Assembly (NCBI GenBank): GCA_013299045.1
Contig: JAAFJX010000020.1
Location: 1 to 64,000 of the forward strand
Direction of reading: 5' to 3'
Source of the DNA: Cytophagales bacterium
Lineage (GTDB): Bacteria; Bacteroidota; Bacteroidia; Cytophagales; Bernardetiaceae
Length of the DNA stretch: 64,000 nucleotides
The first letter of the stretch is position 1. Each line of letters begins with the position of its first letter. Positions 22,803 through 55,935 of the stretch are shown piece after piece. The position numbers and the translations under genes are program-made. Below the pieces are notes generated by a model, which saw only the letters and a program-made list of their open reading frames with translations, did no database searches and was not told where the DNA came from.

Positions 22803-23168
22803 CTAAAAGAAAGGAAGGTCGTCTGTGGGAAGTGGTGCAGAATCAAAATGGTCTGGGGTGCTGGCTTGCCCGGCCGAAGCAGTACTCTCTGCCGTTATAC
22901 GCCAAGCCTCAAGGTTTGTGAAATAAACCATTTCGCCCGTTTTGCTTTGATAAGGGCGGCCTCGTAAGTTGAAAGACACTTTGAGCGTGTCGTTTTCATT
23001 GAAAGTATCCAGCATTTCACAGCGGTCTTGAGTTAGCTGAAATTTAATGTGTTGGCTGTATTGACCATCAGCAATTTCAAGAACGAACTCACGTTTTCTG
23101 AACTTTTCAGATACCTGCTGGGCTGCAAATTTAACGGCTAGCTTGCCTACAACTTCAAAAGATGACAT
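22803..23168 (-). CDS. DUF3127 protein with SSB-like acidic tail
   Basis: A 121-residue single-domain protein. The core (residues 1-90) has an OB-fold-like strand pattern with FRKREFVLEI, IKFQLTQDRCEMLD and KVSFNLRGRPYQ, diagnostic of DUF3127, a small Bacteroidota family. After a Ser/Ala/Pro linker the protein ends D-D-L-P-F-F, very similar to the acidic DDDIPF tip by which single-stranded DNA-binding protein recruits repair and replication factors. A nucleic-acid-binding role is therefore a fair inference. It is convergent with the unknown gene at 22387 and borders the repeat region at 23301. Confidence 0.85.
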   Translation of the reverse strand: MSSFEVVGKLAVKFAAQQVSEKFRKREFVLEIADGQYSQHIKFQLTQDRCEMLDTFNENDTLKVSFNLRGRPYQSKTGEMVYFTNLEAWRITAESTASAGQASTPDHFDSAPLPTDDLPFF

Positions 23169-23300: not shown

Positions 23301-23575
23301 TAGTTGTCCCTTAAAAAGTCGGCATATTATCTGCTTTGGGAACACCTTAACGGCCTTTGATAGACTTCTCCTCTCTACTTTTTGCCTTGATGCAGCACTG
23401 AAGCGCGAGCTGTAGGGCATAGCAAAATAATCAAACCTCGCAAAAGGCCAATTTAGATGAAAAAAATAGCTTCTTCATTAACCTCTCTAAGAGATGTCAG
23501 TTTTAGGAAGCCAATAATTGTATTTTTTGAGATTGGTCTTTTGTTTTTGGAGTACGGGCAACTACGGCCATCATA
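23301..23575 (-). repeat. Dispersed repeat, copy C (inverted, partial)
   Basis: The 448-base gap 23169-23616 contains no convincing gene. Starting at the terminus TAGTTGTCCCTTAAAAA (23301-23317), its reverse complement matches 54983 back to about 54481: the segment around 23340-23460 corresponds to 54781-54920, and 23465-23575 to the conserved end of the 11-bp array and the CTCTnAGAGAG block at 54488-54594. The 180-base hairpin insert of the 54-kb copy is absent. Identity by eye is about 75-90 percent. It follows the baseplate-like gene. Confidence 0.75.
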
Positions 23576-23616
23576 GGGCGTGCTGTGGTTAAAGCGAATA
23601 GGATAAAAAAAAACAG

Positions 23617-26481
23617 CTAGGCAGATTGCTCGCGCCACAAGCCAAGTAAGAATTTGGTCATATTAAAGGTTAGCCTCTGATAGTCTTGGCCTGGTTCTTT
23701 GGTGGCTAAACTTCTAATCCATGCAAAAAACATATCTTCAAAGGCTTTTGCGTCTTTCCAAGACAAATAGTAAGCAAAGGGTTCAATATGAGCTGGGGAG
23801 TTGATACGTATTATTTCCTGTACCAATAACCTAAATTCTGGGTTGCTGAAACGGGCTGTCCAGTTTGGAAAGAAAAGGCTAATGCGGAATCCATAAAAGC
23901 TATCGGGTATCTGTATCTCTTCTTTTGTGCCTGTTTCGTCATCAGGGTATTCTAGATGAACAAAGTTTTCAAAATCAGGAAGTTGTAAGTTTAACAAAGC
24001 CTCTTTGATGGCATCTAGTCGCGTTTGAGCTTCTTCACGGCTTTTGTAGGAATGCTCTTCGCGCAGCGATAGCTTGGTGTCGGCTGTTTGGAAGCATAAC
24101 CAAAAAATATCGTCTGTTTCGCGGCGGATAAAATAGTTGAGTTCTTGTTTGTATTCGGTCTTGATGTGGTTAATGTGTTGTTCACGCTCTGCAATATTAC
24201 AAAATTCATCAAAAACAAAGTGGAGACCAATTTCGGGGAAGTGCATAGCAAAACCAAAAAGAGCTTCTTCTGCATTCGGTCTCAATAAATTATGCTCTAC
24301 CAAGTGCATGGACTCAGACTGCGCGTTGAGCTTAGCAACCAACTCTTGCAGCGCCCAGAGTGCGCCAAAAGCGTCGCTTTGAGATGGAAACATACCCGCA
24401 TCACACCATTTGCCTAGCCTGGAGTCTTTATAAACCAAATAATGGAGTCCTGTCCCCGAGCCGTCTGTGCCCACACGAAAATTAGTTGTGTCTAGAGCCA
24501 GTTTTAGAAAATTGTCTTCAATACAGCTGCTCACAAAAGGAATCGTTTTGCGAAGCAAGAACTCTTTATAGCTCTCATCAAATTCAGCAAAATTAGCCTG
24601 TGGGTCAACAAAAAAGAAGTGGCGTTCTATAAACTCATCGTCCACGGTGTGGTTTTCAATAATGGCATTATCTGCCCAAACACTGCTGCTACCAGCTTCT
24701 ACCAGCTCTATATCCAAGTCCTTGAAAACATGAAACATAGACTGAAACAGTGCATCATCATCAGAATCAGCCAAGTCCAACAACAATATGAGCCGAGACT
24801 CTATACCAGCTGCGTGTTTTAAGCTCTGATAGTCAAGCGCTTGTCCTCTTGCGCCAGAGGTCATGGCTGCATTTTTCAAAAACTTCGATTTAGCATTCAA
24901 CAAATGCTGCTCATAGGCTTCGGGGCTTTGGTATTCATTGAATTTGCTCAGGGAGTACTCTGAAAAATTTTCACCGTAAATGGCCAGCATATAGTCCAAA
25001 AACCTGGACCGTCTTTCACCTCCTTCTTGCAGTTTGCTATTGAGAGCTTCTAGCGCCTCAGCATAATTATGGGAGTTGGGCGTGTTGTCATAGTCAAAAA
25101 TAGCAAAATTTTCTTTGAACAGATTTAGCTCCTTAGCTTTAGGTACTAGCAGGCCTACATCTTGCGAAAAATAGGTTTTGGGCTGTGCGCTCAAAGACAA
25201 TAAGTTGGGCAACTGAGCCAACTGCGCCAAATAATTAGCCATTATTTGCTCAAAAAATAATAAATATGTTTTGAGTTGTTTGATTTGCGCCAGCCTTTCC
25301 GAACTGGCCGAACTAGGAACGCCAAACTCACCTAAACCGTATATCTCGGGCAAGTGGTTCTGTATAGAATAATAGTTGGCATCTAGCCTCTGTCCATGCG
25401 TGGCTTCTGTCAAATTGTTGAGATTGGTTTCTGTAATGTACAAGCGCCTGTCTAGGTTTCTCATATCCTGAAAGTACTTGACCGTACTATTTTTATCAGG
25501 CTTGTAGCGAATACCATTCCTAAAGAAGAGAATTTTTTCTATCAGTTCATCAATGCCTGCAAGTTCTACACGAGGTATCTCGTTTTCTTTCAACGTTACG
25601 AGGCCCTCGGTTTGCTTTTGTCCGCCTACCCACAGGCAAAAATCAGAGAGGCTGATAATGCTCTCTACGTTCATCATAATTTTGGATATGTCCGAAACCG
25701 CAAATTCAGTAAGTTTAGGTCTAAAATCGGCTTCGTCTATAAAGCCATGCTTGAGCAAAGGGCCTTCAAAAACTTCTGCAATATCCTGCTTGCGTGCCAG
25801 AATGGTTGGATAATCATAAAAGCGCAGCTCGGGGGTCAGGAAGTTCTCTAAAGCCAGCAGAATATCTGCCAAAATGCGCTCTATGGTTCTGGATTCATTG
25901 ATTTGGACTTGGCAGCCAATCGTGATGGGCACTTCTTCAATGATAGAGATGCTATCGATGTCTTCGCAAAGATTGCGGTATTTCAAAAATACGCTTTTGC
26001 TGTTTTCAATCATTTTGAGTTGGCCTTCTGCATCATCTTTGAGATAGGGAGCAGCCTGCAAACGAATTTTATAAAGCCCCATTTGGCTCGCAGCGGTGCT
26101 CTGAACAGGCTCTAACCAAACGTTCATAACACCCTTCACTTCATCAAAGATAACCTTGCGGTAGTCATTAATGGTTTGAGGCTGCGACGAAAAAATATGT
26201 TCTGGTTCAAACAAGCCCAGCATTTTTTTGTTCAAACGCCCTGTTTTAGGGTCTCTCAGAAGGTTTTGTATGGGCGTTTCGGTCTTGAAGGCCAGTTCGG
26301 TAAGCGCAAAACAAAACTGCTCCAGCAGCGTGATTCCAGGGTCGTGTTCGTTGTAGTCTGTCCAATAGTCTCCTGCTAAATCTTGGGCTTTTTGAAGTGC
26401 TTTTTGACGCAAATACTTAAAGTCCAAGATAGAGTTTAAGTGCTGCCGCGTGAACGGAATGAATAAGGATTCTTGCGCCAT
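23617..26481 (-). CDS. Baseplate wedge-like protein (gpJ/Afp12-type)
   Basis: A 954-residue cytoplasmic-type protein with no signal peptide. Residues 40-56, GDYWTDYNEHDPGITLLEQ region, match the signature W-T-D-[FY]-N-E-H-D-P-G-[IV]-T-[IL]-L-E of large baseplate proteins in phage-tail-like contractile injection systems. The rest is long, acidic and shows no enzymatic motif. Length fits Afp12/Pvc12-like wedge components. Unusually, no sheath, tube, spike, other baseplate or AAA+ gene is nearby, only the 69-residue gene 3 bases upstream. It could be an outlying part of a split injection-system locus or a protein repurposed from one. The motif is seen; the role is inferred. Confidence 0.55.
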   Translation of the reverse strand: MAQESLFIPFTRQHLNSILDFKYLRQKALQKAQDLAGDYWTDYNEHDPGITLLEQFCFALTELAFKTETPIQNLLRDPKTGRLNKKMLGLFEPEHIFSSQPQTINDYRKVIFDEVKGVMNVWLEPVQSTAASQMGLYKIRLQAAPYLKDDAEGQLKMIENSKSVFLKYRNLCEDIDSISIIEEVPITIGCQVQINESRTIERILADILLALENFLTPELRFYDYPTILARKQDIAEVFEGPLLKHGFIDEADFRPKLTEFAVSDISKIMMNVESIISLSDFCLWVGGQKQTEGLVTLKENEIPRVELAGIDELIEKILFFRNGIRYKPDKNSTVKYFQDMRNLDRRLYITETNLNNLTEATHGQRLDANYYSIQNHLPEIYGLGEFGVPSSASSERLAQIKQLKTYLLFFEQIMANYLAQLAQLPNLLSLSAQPKTYFSQDVGLLVPKAKELNLFKENFAIFDYDNTPNSHNYAEALEALNSKLQEGGERRSRFLDYMLAIYGENFSEYSLSKFNEYQSPEAYEQHLLNAKSKFLKNAAMTSGARGQALDYQSLKHAAGIESRLILLLDLADSDDDALFQSMFHVFKDLDIELVEAGSSSVWADNAIIENHTVDDEFIERHFFFVDPQANFAEFDESYKEFLLRKTIPFVSSCIEDNFLKLALDTTNFRVGTDGSGTGLHYLVYKDSRLGKWCDAGMFPSQSDAFGALWALQELVAKLNAQSESMHLVEHNLLRPNAEEALFGFAMHFPEIGLHFVFDEFCNIAEREQHINHIKTEYKQELNYFIRRETDDIFWLCFQTADTKLSLREEHSYKSREEAQTRLDAIKEALLNLQLPDFENFVHLEYPDDETGTKEEIQIPDSFYGFRISLFFPNWTARFSNPEFRLLVQEIIRINSPAHIEPFAYYLSWKDAKAFEDMFFAWIRSLATKEPGQDYQRLTFNMTKFLLGLWREQSA

Positions 26482-26484
26482 TTG

Positions 26485-26694
26485 CTAATTACTTTTTTTA
26501 TTTTTTGTGGGTATAAGGTCGTTTTGGCTGAGCTTGGGCGAGCTTTCGGTATCACCTTTGAGCTGCATATTGGCCTGCACATTAATCTTACCTATCAGCT
26601 CATAAACTTGATTGAAAGGCAAATTGCCCAAGGCTTTGAGTATGGTGTTGGCCTCCTCTAAACTCACTTCTAAAAAAATATTTGGTTTATTCAT
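26485..26694 (-). CDS. Small phage-type protein upstream of the baseplate-like gene
   Basis: A 69-residue protein. The first half, VSLEEANTILKALGNLPFNQVYELIGKI, has the pattern of a small family common in phage and phage-like tail regions, in which a helix ending xLPxxxVxxLIxKI follows SLEEAN. The second half is polar and probably disordered. Its stop lies 3 bases before the start of the 954-residue gene, so both are one transcriptional and probably translational unit. Function unknown; a chaperone or assembly partner is conceivable. Confidence 0.6.
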   Translation of the reverse strand: MNKPNIFLEVSLEEANTILKALGNLPFNQVYELIGKINVQANMQLKGDTESSPKLSQNDLIPTKNKKSN

Positions 26695-26896
26695 AAATCA
26701 TTGTGGCTAAAATGCAGGTTTAGGCTCTTTGCAAACATAAAACGAAGATTTGGAACTCCCAAAACATTCTGCCAAAAATGCTTAACTTTCATATAAAAAG
26801 ATATTCATTTGTGCTACAATTTACGAGAGAACATTTTTTTCTACGAAACCATTTCTTATCATAAAACGCTTTGCTTTTTGACCAAAACTATCATTG
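26695..26896. other. Gene-free stretch before repeat copy A
   Basis: AT-rich sequence upstream of the minus-strand small gene, with no open frame of note. It should contain the promoter for the two-gene unit 26694-23617, but no full consensus was identified. The repeat begins at 26897 and fills most of the remaining gap to 27519. Confidence 0.4.
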
Positions 26897-27120
26897 ATTA
26901 AAACCGTCCTTTCCGCAGAATTACGTGGGTTTTTGAACGAAATCAAGCGCTTCAATTAACCTCTCTTGAGTCGTCGAAAAGCCCTTTTTGAGTTTCTTGA
27001 GTTCCAAACGCCCTCTTTTCACTTTTGTAGAGGCCATTTTCTCGCGTTTTCAAATAACTTTTTGTCAAATTCCTTACATCTGACTTTTTGACTAATGATT
27101 GTTTTTCTACAATTTATTGG

Positions 27121-27196
27121 GCGTTCCCGCTTCGCGGTCGTTCGTCTTTGGGCTTTGCTTCGGTGCTACGCACTAAACCCGCCGCCTCTCTAACGC
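27121..27196. repeat. Multi-hairpin module bounded by GCGTT/AACGC (copy A)
   Basis: GCGTT at 27121-27125 pairs with AACGC at 27192-27196. Inside are CCGC-TTC-GCGG and GTGC-TAC-GCAC, two 4-bp stems with 3-base loops, and GGGCTTTG...AAACCC-type pairing. The layout resembles GC-rich repeats scattered in many Bacteroidota genomes that begin GGGCGTTCCC and end TAACGC. No function is established. Confidence 0.65.
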
Positions 27197-27300
27197 TAAA
27201 TACAAGCCAATAGACGCACTCAATAACAAAAAAAAGGATAAAGTCGCAAACCCGCTTGATGCCTAAAAATTGCTTTTGTCCTATTTTGCCTCAGCCATAG

Positions 27301-27355
27301 GATAGCCGTATCATAGCCGTATGATAGCCGTATCATAGCCGTAGTTGGCCGTACT
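27301..27355. repeat. 11-bp tandem array (copy A)
   Basis: Four units of [GC]ATAGCCGTA[TG] at 27301, 27312, 27323 and 27334, then a degenerate fifth, TTGGCCGTACT. The first base alternates G, C, G, C. The 11-base period is about one helical turn, so the units present the same face of DNA. Confidence 0.8.
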
Positions 27356-27519
27356 TTAAAAGTAAAGTCCTTATCTTAAAAAAGTACAATTATTCGCGCC
27401 CTAAAACTTACATCTCTCAGAGAGACTAATCAAGAGCTTATTTTTTTGAGCAAAACTGGCTTCGTTTGAATTTTAATGACTACACTTGCAACTCTTCCGT
27501 CCATTACGAAAAAGCCTGA

Positions 27520-53924: not shown

Positions 53925-53953
53925 AAAAAAGGGGAAGCAATTCCCTTTTTTTT
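53925..53953 (+). terminator. Rho-independent terminator after the LysM gene
   Basis: AAAAAAGGGGAA, loop, TTCCCTTTTTTTT: a stem of about 11 bp with one bulged G and a run of eight Ts, 30 bases after the stop codon. Confidence 0.75.
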
Positions 53954-54270
53954 GTTTTATCTAGTCTTCCCTTAAAAAATATCTAAAGTATTTATTGTCA
54001 GTAAATTAAACAAGCGTTTTATCTTTAAAATATCTTGGTAGTTTATTAAAACCGTGCTTTCCGCAGAGTTACGGGGGTTTTTGAACGAAAGCAAGCTCTT
54101 AAATTAACCTCTCTTGAGTTGTCAAAAAGCCCTTTTTGAGTTTTTTAAGTTCCAAATGCCCTCTTTTCACCTTTGTAGAGGCCATTTTCTCGCGTTTTCA
54201 AATAACTTTTTGCCAAATTACTTACATCTGGCTTTTTGACTAATGATTGTTTTTCTACAATTCTATTGGG

Positions 54271-54351
54271 GCGTTCCCGCTTCGCGGTCGTTCGTCTTTG
54301 GGCTTCGCTTCGCTTCGGTGCTACGCACTAAACCCGCCGCCTCTCTAACGC
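54271..54351. repeat. Multi-hairpin module bounded by GCGTT/AACGC (copy B)
   Basis: GCGTT (54271-54275) pairs with AACGC (54347-54351). The stems CCGC-TTC-GCGG and GTGC-TAC-GCAC are unchanged from copy A, while the only length change is an extra CGCTT unit in the arm between them. Confidence 0.65.
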
Positions 54352-54454
54352 AAATACAGGCCAATAGACGTACTCAATAACAAAAAAAAGAATAAAGTCG
54401 CAAACCCGCTTGATGCCTAAAAATTGCTTTTGTCCTATTTTGCCTCAACCATAG

Positions 54455-54509
54455 GATAGCCGTATCATAGCCGTATGATAGCCGTATGATAGCCGTAGTT
54501 GGCCGTACT
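54455..54509. repeat. 11-bp tandem array (copy B)
   Basis: Units at 54455, 54466, 54477 and 54488 of [GC]ATAGCCGTA[TG], then TTGGCCGTACT. Same number and phase as copy A; one unit differs by C to G at its first base. Confidence 0.8.
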
Positions 54510-54670
54510 TTAAAAGTAAAGCCTCTATCTTAGAAAAGTACAATTATTCGCTTCCTAAAACGTACATCTCTCAGAGAGGTTGATTAAGAGCTTGTTTTTA
54601 GCCTATTTTGTCAAAAAACTGGCAAAACCTCAACGCTTCTTGCGGCCTGCCATGCCTCGCATCAGACAAA

Positions 54671-54755
54671 AGCGAATGGCTCAAAGGTCAGAGGGTGAGA
54701 GTTTCTGTGCAACCATGTTTGGTAGGAGATTGAATCAAAGAAAAAGCCATTCGCT
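54671..54755. repeat. 11-bp inverted repeat in the insert
   Basis: AGCGAATGGCT (54671-54681) and AGCCATTCGCT (54745-54755) are exact complements 63 bases apart. The insert is missing from copy C, so it may be a separate small element placed in copy B. Confidence 0.65.
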
Positions 54756-54757
54756 GG

Positions 54758-54788
54758 TTTAGATGAAAAAAGTTGTTTTTCATCTAAA
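54758..54788. repeat. Perfect 13-bp hairpin
   Basis: TTTAGATGAAAAA, loop AGTTG, TTTTTCATCTAAA. The right arm continues into sequence conserved in copy C, while the left arm is specific to copy B, suggesting an inverted duplication created when the insert formed. Confidence 0.75.
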
Positions 54789-55035
54789 TTGGCCTTTTGC
54801 GAGGCTTGATTTCTTTGCTATGCCCTACGGTCGGAACTTTCAGCTTGCGCTTCAGTGCTGCATCAAGGCAAAAAGTAGAGAGGAGAAGTCTATCAAAGGC
54901 CGTCAAGGTGTTCCCAAAATAGGTAAACTATCCTCCTTAAATTTAGCTTACATCTATTGAATGTACTTTTTAAGGGACTACTATCTAACTTGTTGCTATT
55001 TGGCTGCCACTTAAAAAGTCTTTCTAAGACATATC

Positions 55036-55133
55036 TAGTTGTCCCTTAAAAAATATCTAAGATATTTTAAAGATGAAATTCTTGTTTAATTTTCTGATAA
55101 TAAAGACTTTAAATACATTTTAAGGGAAAACTA
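55036..55133. mobile_element. 98-bp miniature inverted-repeat element
   Basis: Begins TAGTTGTCCCTTAAAA (55036-55051) and ends TTTTAAGGGAAAACTA (55118-55133), with an AT-rich interior. The same termini bound the 1-kb element next to it, occur at 23301, and the interior is repeated in inverse orientation at 53962-54034. The size, palindromic ends and lack of coding capacity fit a MITE; TA at each end suggests mobilisation by a transposase that targets TA, which is not present in the window. Confidence 0.55.
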
Positions 55134-55152
55134 TTTATTTTTTTAGGAACAA

Positions 55153-55935
55153 CTATTTGGCATCTACTTCTTTTTTAAAACTTTTGAAGGCTCTAAAAAA
55201 GCAAGTAGCGACTGTACTTTGGCCTTCGACAGTGTTCAAATACTTTTCTTCTGCTGAGTTTGTTAGGAAGCCTGTTTCTATCAAAACACTTGGCATAGAG
55301 GTCTTCCAGAGCACTAAAAAGCCACTTTGCTTGACCCCACGTGAAGTGCGCTTGGCGTAGGTTTTTATCTCTGTCTCAATTTTTTGAGCAAAACGCAAAC
55401 TCTGCGATTGGTAAGCACTTTGGTAGTTAGACATTCTGATATAAGAAAGCATATTGTTTGGGTCAAAATTTTGGTAGCGTTTTTTATAGTCTGATTCTTG
55501 CAGAATAGAGGCATTCTCGCGCATAGCTACTTCCAAGTTATCGTCTGTTTTATGCGTACCCATGACATAGGTTTCAGTTCCTGCCGTGCTTTTATTCTTG
55601 GAGGAGTTGCAATGAATAGAGATAAAGAGGTCTGCCTTGCTGCGGTTGGCAATAGCCGCGCGCTCGTCTAGCTCTACAAAAACATCGGTTTTACGCGTGT
55701 AAATAACTTTAACGGCAGGAAATTCTTTGTTTATCATCTTGCCTAGAGCCAGGGTAATGGCCAAAGCAATGTGTTTTTCGTGTTTATAGCTACGGCCAAG
55801 TGTGCCTGGGTCTTTTCCGCCATGCCCAGCATCTAGCACCACCGTCAGCAGTTTTTTGTCGGGTTTTTGGGGCTGTGCGGCCGCCAGAGCGAAACACAAA
55901 GCGAAGCAAAAAGTAATTCGTAAGTAAGAGGTCAT
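55153..55935 (-). CDS. N-acetylmuramoyl-L-alanine amidase (Amidase_3)
   Basis: A 260-residue exported cell-wall hydrolase. A signal peptide (about 1-20, ending LAAAQPQ) precedes the catalytic domain with zinc-ligand blocks VVLDAGHGGKDPGT near residue 32, SIHCNSSKN near 108, and the C-terminal IETGFLTNSAEE that carries the catalytic Glu. It cleaves the bond between MurNAc and the stem peptide during cell separation. An in-frame ATG at 56043 would bury the signal peptide 36 residues in, so 55935 is chosen. Confidence 0.93.
   Translation of the reverse strand: MTSYLRITFCFALCFALAAAQPQKPDKKLLTVVLDAGHGGKDPGTLGRSYKHEKHIALAITLALGKMINKEFPAVKVIYTRKTDVFVELDERAAIANRSKADLFISIHCNSSKNKSTAGTETYVMGTHKTDDNLEVAMRENASILQESDYKKRYQNFDPNNMLSYIRMSNYQSAYQSQSLRFAQKIETEIKTYAKRTSRGVKQSGFLVLWKTSMPSVLIETGFLTNSAEEKYLNTVEGQSTVATCFFRAFKSFKKEVDAK

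What the first reader, a model, noticed from the sequence alone, without database searches (positions are those of the whole stretch)
23617..26694. Solitary contractile-injection baseplate gene
The WTDYNEHDPGI signature is typical of Afp12/gpJ-like proteins, which normally sit in clusters of 10 to 20 tail genes. Here only a 69-residue phage-type protein accompanies it. It could belong to a scattered injection system or have a new role, such as a surface scaffold.
Basis: partly seen in the sequence, partly recalled or inferred. Interest (0 to 1): 0.6.

Follow-up and report, generated by a model that had tools for sequence, protein, structure and literature searches.

The report
Baseplate gene of a scattered injection machine
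The lone gene makes a baseplate part of a bacterial contractile syringe whose other parts are encoded at eight or more other places in the same genome, so it is not an orphan but one piece of a machine whose gene cluster has been broken up.

Summary
In detail: window 26694-23617 (-) carries a 69-aa ORF and, 3 nt later, a 954-aa ORF; no other injection gene was found in the 64 kb. The 954-aa protein is a full-length Alg12/Afp12-type baseplate wedge (phmmer to Alg12 of Algoriphagus, E 2e-63; Foldseek's top five are all CIS-12 chains). It is not an orphan. The same genome encodes ten more components (sheath, two tubes, gp25, VgrG-like spike, CIS_tube adaptor, Alg11, cap adaptor, AAA+ ATPase, short fibre/crown): twelve genes at nine places on six contigs, at most three together. 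Of 241 order genomes, all 63 with this Alg12 also have the sheath. Many relatives keep the genes in one cluster; the window's family shows intermediate break-up. The 69-aa ORF is not a known phage protein: it is a conserved, unnamed family usually directly upstream of alg12. So: a scattered contractile injection system. Precedent: Cardinium, 16 genes in five regions (PMC3486910). New are the degree of dispersal in a 4-Mb, probably Cytophagales, genome and the small partner. Assembly and function are inferred, not shown. The surface-scaffold idea has no support.

The parts
23617..26481 (-). alg12/afp12-type baseplate wedge gene, 954 aa
   Evidence: phmmer to 7aeb Alg12, E 2.2e-63; model pLDDT 81.7; Foldseek E 2e-41 to 2e-16 to five CIS-12 chains; orthologues
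26485..26694 (-). 69-aa small protein, predicted helical hairpin, directly upstream of alg12; unnamed eCIS-linked family
   Evidence: found directly upstream of alg12 in 18 of 30 and 12 of 80 loci; helices 12-23 and 27-47, mean pLDDT 72.9
26894..27445 (.). partial copy of a dispersed repeat, 200 bp upstream of the pair
   Evidence: the repeat is genome-wide, so belonging to the feature is not shown
23327..23579 (.). partial, inverted copy of the same repeat, 38 bp past the end of alg12
   Evidence: same reservation

Best explanation
Window 23617-26694 encodes the Alg12-type baseplate wedge subunit, plus a small co-encoded partner, of a contractile injection system of the AlgoCIS/T6SSiv class whose genes are dispersed. 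By analogy with the solved AlgoCIS, Alg12 pairs with Alg11; six pairs form the iris of the baseplate; gp25 (Alg9) sits on it and starts the sheath; the VgrG-like spike (Alg8) and the CIS_tube adaptor sit in the centre; a short trimeric fibre or crown (the 244-aa type protein) binds Alg12; contraction drives the tube out. Shown: the genes, the intactness and constraint of eight of them, the co-occurrence of Alg12 with the sheath, and the predicted fold of Alg12. Inferred: that products of nine places assemble into one particle, and that the 69-aa protein is an Alg12 chaperone or small wedge subunit (from the 3-nt spacing and its usual position). Not known: free eCIS or membrane-anchored (T6SSiv- or tCIS-like) action, cargo, target, and how expression is coordinated.
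For: Fold and sequence. Components in the own genome: sheath (PF17482 56 bits; PDB sheath E 1e-168), two tubes, gp25, Alg8 (Phage_base_V), Alg11, ATPase, CIS_tube, 244-aa type fibre/crown, Alg16B-like cap adaptor, plus the two window genes. They lie inside 83-256 kb contigs of a 99.8% complete, 0.01% contaminated assembly, so contig breaks do not explain the scatter. 42 reference eCIS proteins against 380 kb of control stretches of the same contigs gave one weak AAA hit. Co-occurrence with the sheath 63 of 63 among 241 genomes, Fisher p 1e-48, not corrected for relatedness; of the 11 family-f1 genomes listed, 3 have both and 8 neither. Purifying selection on all 8 genes compared between G000 and G121 (pN 0.02-0.29 against pS 0.73-0.85). 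75 of 80 named loci have other eCIS genes within 10 kb of Alg12.
Against: No particle, expression or interaction data. The sheath scores below the PF04984 cut-off (23.7 against 31.4 bits). The 16B assignment is weak (25-26% identity; the G142 homologue matches the AlgoCIS cap adaptor only at E 0.0014). Alg11 was not found in the same-genus genome G121, which is 84% complete. Alg12 and the 69-aa gene evolve faster than the other six compared (60% and 59% identity against 77-97%) and Alg12 of this genus sits on a long branch (1.5 changes per column), which could mean relaxed constraint or a changed role. Dispersal itself makes stoichiometric co-expression harder.
Confidence: 0.86

Rival explanations
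1. Orphan remnant: alg12 and its partner are left over from a lost eCIS and are decaying.
For: Fast evolution of Alg12 relative to sheath and tube and a long stem branch; no cluster around it.
Against: Intact 954/951-aa frames in two species of the genus with pN well below pS, ten other components in the genome, and co-occurrence with the sheath in 63 of 63 genomes.
Confidence: 0.05
2. New role: Alg12 reused outside an injection machine, for example as a surface scaffold.
For: Separate from other eCIS genes and faster evolving than the six other components compared.
Against: All 63 genomes with it have a sheath; 24 columns stay invariant across it and 32 relatives, most of them from clusters; the best folds are all baseplate wedges. 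No signal peptide or anchor was looked for specifically.
Confidence: 0.04
3. A sub-case of the best explanation, so the odds overlap: same dispersed system, but acting as a cell-bound machine (T6SSiv- or tCIS-like) rather than a released eCIS; the short fibre whose first 38 residues resemble tCIS Cis19 would be the anchor or crown.
For: A profile of the 244-aa family hits All3316/Cis19 of tCIS over residues 1-38 (E 6e-5); the homologue here has 240 aa against 1443 residues for AlgoCIS Alg19 (PMC13314943, passage); the dispersed Cardinium system is called T6SSiv (PMC8831229, passage).
Against: The middle of the same family resembles a Bdellovibrio fibre protein (bd2133, E 6e-7), which fits target binding; a long Alg19-type fibre and a membrane anchor were not searched for; mode of action cannot be read from sequence.
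Confidence: 0.4

Closest known systems
AlgoCIS of Algoriphagus machipongonensis (eCIS subtype Ib)
   Same: Alg12 aligns over residues 17-552 and 863-909 (E 2e-63); counterparts of the tube, sheath, Alg5, 7, 8, 9, 11, 12 and 16B were found here
   Different: AlgoCIS is one cluster of 18 ORFs (PMC8894135, passages read); here nine places. Its fibre Alg19 has 1443 residues (PMC13314943, passages read); the fibre-like protein here has 240. The 69-aa gene was not found in the Cognataquiflexum cluster L102, used here as an Algoriphagus-like stand-in
AFP-like/T6SSiv system of Cardinium hertigii
   Same: dispersed: 16 AFP-like genes in five genome regions (PMC3486910, passages read); the sheath is 180-812 kb from Alg12 on one contig in three small-genome relatives here (G038, G122, G218)
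   Different: Cardinium is a reduced endosymbiont (0.9 Mb); this genome has 4.06 Mb, and the twelve genes found so far lie at nine places
Afp12 / Pvc12 (Serratia AFP, Photorhabdus PVC)
   Same: same fold: Foldseek E 2e-16 to 6rao_J and 4e-23 to 6j0n_P; by sequence the N-terminal ~100 residues round the motif align
   Different: 15-20% identity in the structural alignment; those genes sit in one cassette (recalled)
tCIS of Anabaena (Cis12, Cis19)
   Same: best fold match (7b5h_AD, E 2e-41); fibre N-terminus matches Cis19
   Different: Cis12 of Anabaena has 1335 residues against 954 here; tCIS is anchored in thylakoids (PMC8894136, passages read)

Membership tests
Contractile injection system, eCIS/T6SSiv class | contractile sheath | tested here: met
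   C9:116989-118515, PF17482 56.3 bits over cut-off 26.9, PF04984 below its cut-off; PDB sheath 9r9h E 1e-168
Contractile injection system, eCIS/T6SSiv class | gp19-type inner tube proteins | tested here: met
   two over cut-off: C9:118594-119058 and C39:96303-97082
Contractile injection system, eCIS/T6SSiv class | baseplate: gp25, Alg11, Alg12 | tested here: met
Contractile injection system, eCIS/T6SSiv class | VgrG-like spike and CIS_tube adaptor | tested here: met
Contractile injection system, eCIS/T6SSiv class | AAA+ ATPase of the Afp15 kind (recalled as absent from phages and pyocins) | tested here: met
   C39:60724-62031, 42% identity to the cluster ATPase of G142, E 4e-104; kinship to Afp15 rests on cluster position in G142
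Contractile injection system, eCIS/T6SSiv class | cap adaptor 16B and cap protein 16A (DUF4255) | tested here: inconclusive
   16B-like gene beside the sheath, 25-26% identity; 16A not searched genome-wide
Contractile injection system, eCIS/T6SSiv class | PAAR tip, plug Alg6, tape measure CIS_TMP | not tested
[quoted passage not shown]
   largest linked group found has three genes; the nearest two groups on one contig (tube2, gp25 on C39) are 15 kb apart. A survey rule, not a functional requirement
T6SSiv / tCIS | anchoring of the baseplate to a membrane in the producing cell | not testable with these tools
   needs cryo-tomography
contractile phage or prophage | Alg12-like protein in phage genomes; phage genes nearby | tested here: not met
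   no match in 50,697 phage records at E<=1; the IMG/VR pattern scan gave 42 stretches, none a relative; five neighbours scanned with Pfam, none phage; head genes were not searched genome-wide

The most novel reading that the evidence does not exclude
Contractile injection systems in 4-Mb, presumably free-living Cytophagales and, separately, in the Saprospira/Aureispira group have given up the operon and are assembled in trans from genes scattered over the chromosome, kept together by selection alone, with a dedicated and still unnamed ~70-aa Alg12 partner staying with the baseplate gene as a two-gene unit; linkage-based surveys therefore miss whole working systems.
Probability: 0.35. Interest if true: 0.65.

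Novelty: new variant of a known kind. Interest (0 to 1): 0.47.

Why it matters
Surveys of these machines look for linked genes (within 12 kb and at least ten core genes in the 2021 survey, PMC8213781, passages read). A genome like this one would be scored as lacking the system although twelve components are present. In this order sample the best Alg12 match is not within 30 kb of a sheath gene on the same contig in 24 of 63 genomes (some of these are contig breaks), so counts and ecological associations may be biased. It also offers a natural series, from one cluster (G142) through a split one (G080) to wide dispersal (G000, G121), to ask what an operon is needed for in building a large particle. 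The 69-aa family is a concrete target: in 30 of 110 loci it sits directly before alg12, with no name and no structure.

Tried and rejected
Repeat-driven mobility. The pair is bracketed by two mutually inverted partial copies of a dispersed repeat (38 and 200 bp away; a fuller copy at window 53940-55160 has inverted ends) and several other eCIS genes lie near copies. Control: 20 stretches of 19 kb from the same contigs hold 26 places of the repeat (1 per 14.6 kb); the 235 kb of eCIS stretches hold 20 (1 per 11.7 kb). eCIS units are nearer to a copy (median 1.4 kb, n = 9) than mechanical ORFs of 150 aa or more in the controls (3.9 kb, n = 120), but one-sided p = 0.095. The close bracketing of the pair (1 of 9 units; 0 of 120 control ORFs within 250 bp on both sides) was noticed after the fact. 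I do not claim a mechanism.

Conserved site. Flanks of six units were compared between G000 and G121: the 244-aa type unit shares one neighbour (65% identity); the pair and the ATPase unit have one weak, probably paralogous hit each (29% and 35%); the other three share none. Synteny in the genus in general was not measured, so I do not claim that eCIS genes move more than others.

Phage origin of the 69-aa protein: not supported (3 matches at E about 0.05 among 17 members). Its fold search gave nothing (model pLDDT 73); a profile against PDB gave only E >= 0.35; Pfam nothing below 0.06.

Alg12 as gpJ (PF04865): no match. Promoter and terminator scan round the pair: numbers as in shuffles.

Not every Alg12 has the small partner: 18 of 30 loci and 12 of 80, and in G056 it lies about 7.6 kb from alg12 (L046). 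So it is neither universal nor inseparable.

Paper searches, seen as listings and, for eight papers, passages (one of them without a hit), showed no dispersed eCIS outside Cardinium and relatives. Boeck 2017 and work on Aureispira injection systems (both recalled) did not appear in the listings, so this is weak evidence of absence. No listed paper names 'SalCIS' of PDB 9r9h/9rce.
Full report
What is there. The minus strand of the window carries, at 26694-26485, a 69-aa ORF and, after 3 nt, at 26481-23617, a 954-aa ORF with WTDYNEHDPGI at residues 40-50. The next genes are unrelated: a DUF3127 protein 450 bp downstream and a sortilin/BNR-repeat protein upstream on the other strand.

Identity of the large protein. 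phmmer against PDB sequences gives Alg12 of Algoriphagus (7aeb, E 2.2e-63; 9wsz), All3315 of Anabaena (7b5h, 3.5e-60), SalCis12 (9rce), a baseplate-J-like-named protein (9qgl), Pvc12 and Afp12. An AlphaFold model made from 33 sequences (mean pLDDT 81.7, pTM 0.77) has as its five best Foldseek matches the CIS-12 chains of tCIS, AlgoCIS, PlPVC1, PVC and AFP (E 2e-41 to 2e-16); tailocin and phage baseplate proteins follow at E 5e-5 and weaker. Pfam has no family for it at E<=1. It is therefore an Alg12/Afp12-type wedge protein; the gpJ label goes with the Afp11 side of the wedge (recalled) and is not met by sequence.

It is not alone in the genome. G000 (4.06 Mb, 79 contigs, 99.8% complete) has one copy of Alg12. 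Sheath: C9:116989-118515 (PF04984 below its cut-off, 23.7 against 31.4 bits; PF17482 above its cut-off). Tube: C9:118594-119058 and a second, C39:96303-97082. gp25: C39:112482-112754. Spike Alg8: C47:75913-77685. Alg11: C70:56490-60176. AAA+ ATPase: C39:60724-62031, the best of five AAA matches. CIS_tube adaptor: C36:75472-76137, 49 kb from the pair and 11.5 kb beyond the window's end (PF19266). Short fibre/crown, 240 aa: C53:104691-105410. A 16B-like cap adaptor directly before the sheath, C9:115849-116946 (25-26% identity). With the two window genes that is twelve genes at nine places on six contigs; the only groups are the pair and the triple 16B-sheath-tube. The labels Alg5-16 are transferred from homology and cluster position in G142, G004 and Cognataquiflexum and from the AlgoCIS papers.

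Controls. The 42 reference eCIS proteins give a single weak hit (an AAA domain, E 2e-4) in 380 kb of stretches of the same contigs. The genes lie inside long contigs, so contig breaks do not explain the scatter.

Relatives. The order is probably Cytophagales: the stretch L045 of G031 is contained letter for letter in L054, titled Microscillaceae. In 241 genomes of the order, 63 match this Alg12 and 72 this sheath at E<=1e-5; all 63 are among the 72. Of the 11 genomes of the window's family that the answers list, 3 have both and 8 neither. Fisher's p is 1e-48, but the genomes are related, so it overstates. The best Alg12 match is within 30 kb of a sheath in 39 of 63 genomes, on the same contig but 180-978 kb away in 4, and on another contig in 20. 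Of these 24, 12 belong to family f21 (genomes of 0.7-1.9 Mb, probably Amoebophilaceae by size; unnamed), and some may be contig breaks. Among 80 named loci, 75 have other eCIS genes within 10 kb; the five without are two Aureispira (L074, L099), Saprospira grandis Lewin (L086), a Saprospiraceae MAG (L088) and a 3.7-kb contig, which is uninformative (L097). The list was cut at the best 80 of 559.

A graded series. G142 (its 73-aa protein is 97% identical to that of the Sporocytophaga record L057) has one cluster from cap to ATPase. G004 has the cluster from cap to Alg12 with transposase-like ORFs inside, but its best ATPase match is about 0.85 Mb away, so an unlinked ATPase is not special to the window's lineage. 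G080, in the window's family, keeps twelve component types on one contig but has the 70-aa/Alg12 pair and the ATPase on others. G156 has the pair with the fibre gene in one place and Alg8, Alg11, ATPase, adaptor and sheath on other contigs (390 contigs, so partly uncertain). G121, same genus as the window, is scattered like G000; there the pair and the triple are 7 kb apart with unrelated genes between. In the tree of 25 Alg12 proteins G000 and G121 form a supported pair on a long stem (1.5), in an unresolved fork with G080, G156 and Pandoraea.

Constraint. Between G000 and G121 all eight genes compared are intact and under purifying selection: identity 97% (tube), 90% (sheath), 89% (fibre), 78% (Alg8, ATPase, adaptor), 60% (Alg12), 59% (69 aa); pS 0.73-0.85, pN 0.02-0.29. 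[quoted passage not shown]

The 69-aa protein. A profile of 17 members finds it in 18 of 30 loci and 12 of 80, in these 30 directly upstream of alg12 on the same strand; the loci include systems in Fulvivirga (L051), Sporocytophaga (L057), Saprospiraceae (L075, L084), Pandoraea (L128) and Collimonas (L130). In the last two it is 112 and 114 aa with the motif twice. Core motif: EEANxIxKALGxLPFxxVYELIGKLNxQAN. Model: two helices, 12-23 and 27-47, with a floppy tail. No convincing Pfam, PHROG or PDB match; one uncultured phage carries a weak relative (E 3e-4). In G056 it is about 7.6 kb away from alg12 (L046). I infer an Alg12 chaperone or small wedge subunit; nothing here proves it.

How it would work. 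Following AlgoCIS (PMC8894135, PMC13314943; passages read): Alg11-Alg12 pairs form six wedges of an iris, gp25 joins it to the sheath, the spike fills the centre, fibres bind the Alg12 C-terminus and bridge wedges, and firing tilts the wedges and contracts the sheath. The fibre-like protein here is short; the first 38 residues of its family match Cis19 of tCIS and its middle a Bdellovibrio protein, bd2133 (that it is a fibre is recalled). Whether the particle is freed or anchored is open.

Against known systems. Dispersal has a precedent: Cardinium has 16 AFP-like genes in five regions (PMC3486910, passages read). What differs is genome size (4 Mb, so no sign of endosymbiont reduction) and the degree, twelve genes in nine places. 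The 2021 eCIS survey required groups of at least four genes linked within 12 kb and at least ten core genes (PMC8213781, passages read); the genes found here would fail that rule.

Limits. No expression or structural evidence exists for assembly.

Noticed in passing
window 22803-23168 (-); L074:13719, L088:14002, L099:13885: A DUF3127 gene lies shortly downstream of alg12 both in the window and in three Aureispira-type loci where alg12 is also solitary. A search of all 209 loci held (many with short flanks or not alg12 loci) hit only these three and the window's own locus. The three share one ancestral context, so this is at most two independent cases and may be chance.
   Followed up: partly
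window 53940-55160, 23327-23579, 26894-27445; copies in L005-L008, L162-L164, L185-L186 and 16 of the 20 control stretches L190-L209: Dispersed repeat of about 1.2 kb with roughly 88-bp inverted ends and only small ORFs, about one place per 15 kb in control stretches of G000, not seen in the eight fetched G121 loci searched.
   Followed up: partly
L133:13415-15190; homologues at L131:6769-8610 and L166:16798-18381: In G142 a glycosyl hydrolase family 18 (chitinase-type) gene with a hydrophobic start (seen by eye) lies just before the cap gene; homologues of 47-49% identity lie at the same place in G080 and, by position and similarity, in G004: a candidate cargo or wall-degrading partner.
   Followed up: no
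L086, L074, L088, L099: Saprospira grandis and Aureispira-type genomes also have a solitary alg12 without recognised eCIS genes within 10 kb, a separate lineage in the tree (L086, L099 tested) of gliding predators (lifestyle recalled). Their other parts were not searched.
   Followed up: partly
L128:9618-9956, L130:9605-9949: In Pandoraea and Collimonas the small Alg12 partner carries its helical motif twice in tandem.
   Followed up: no
window 23617-26481 (-), about residues 666-722: Part of Alg12 may resemble the small YegP/UPF0339 fold (2k8e, 2k49; Foldseek E 0.07-0.1); the residue range is my reading of the sequence, not given by the call.
   Followed up: no
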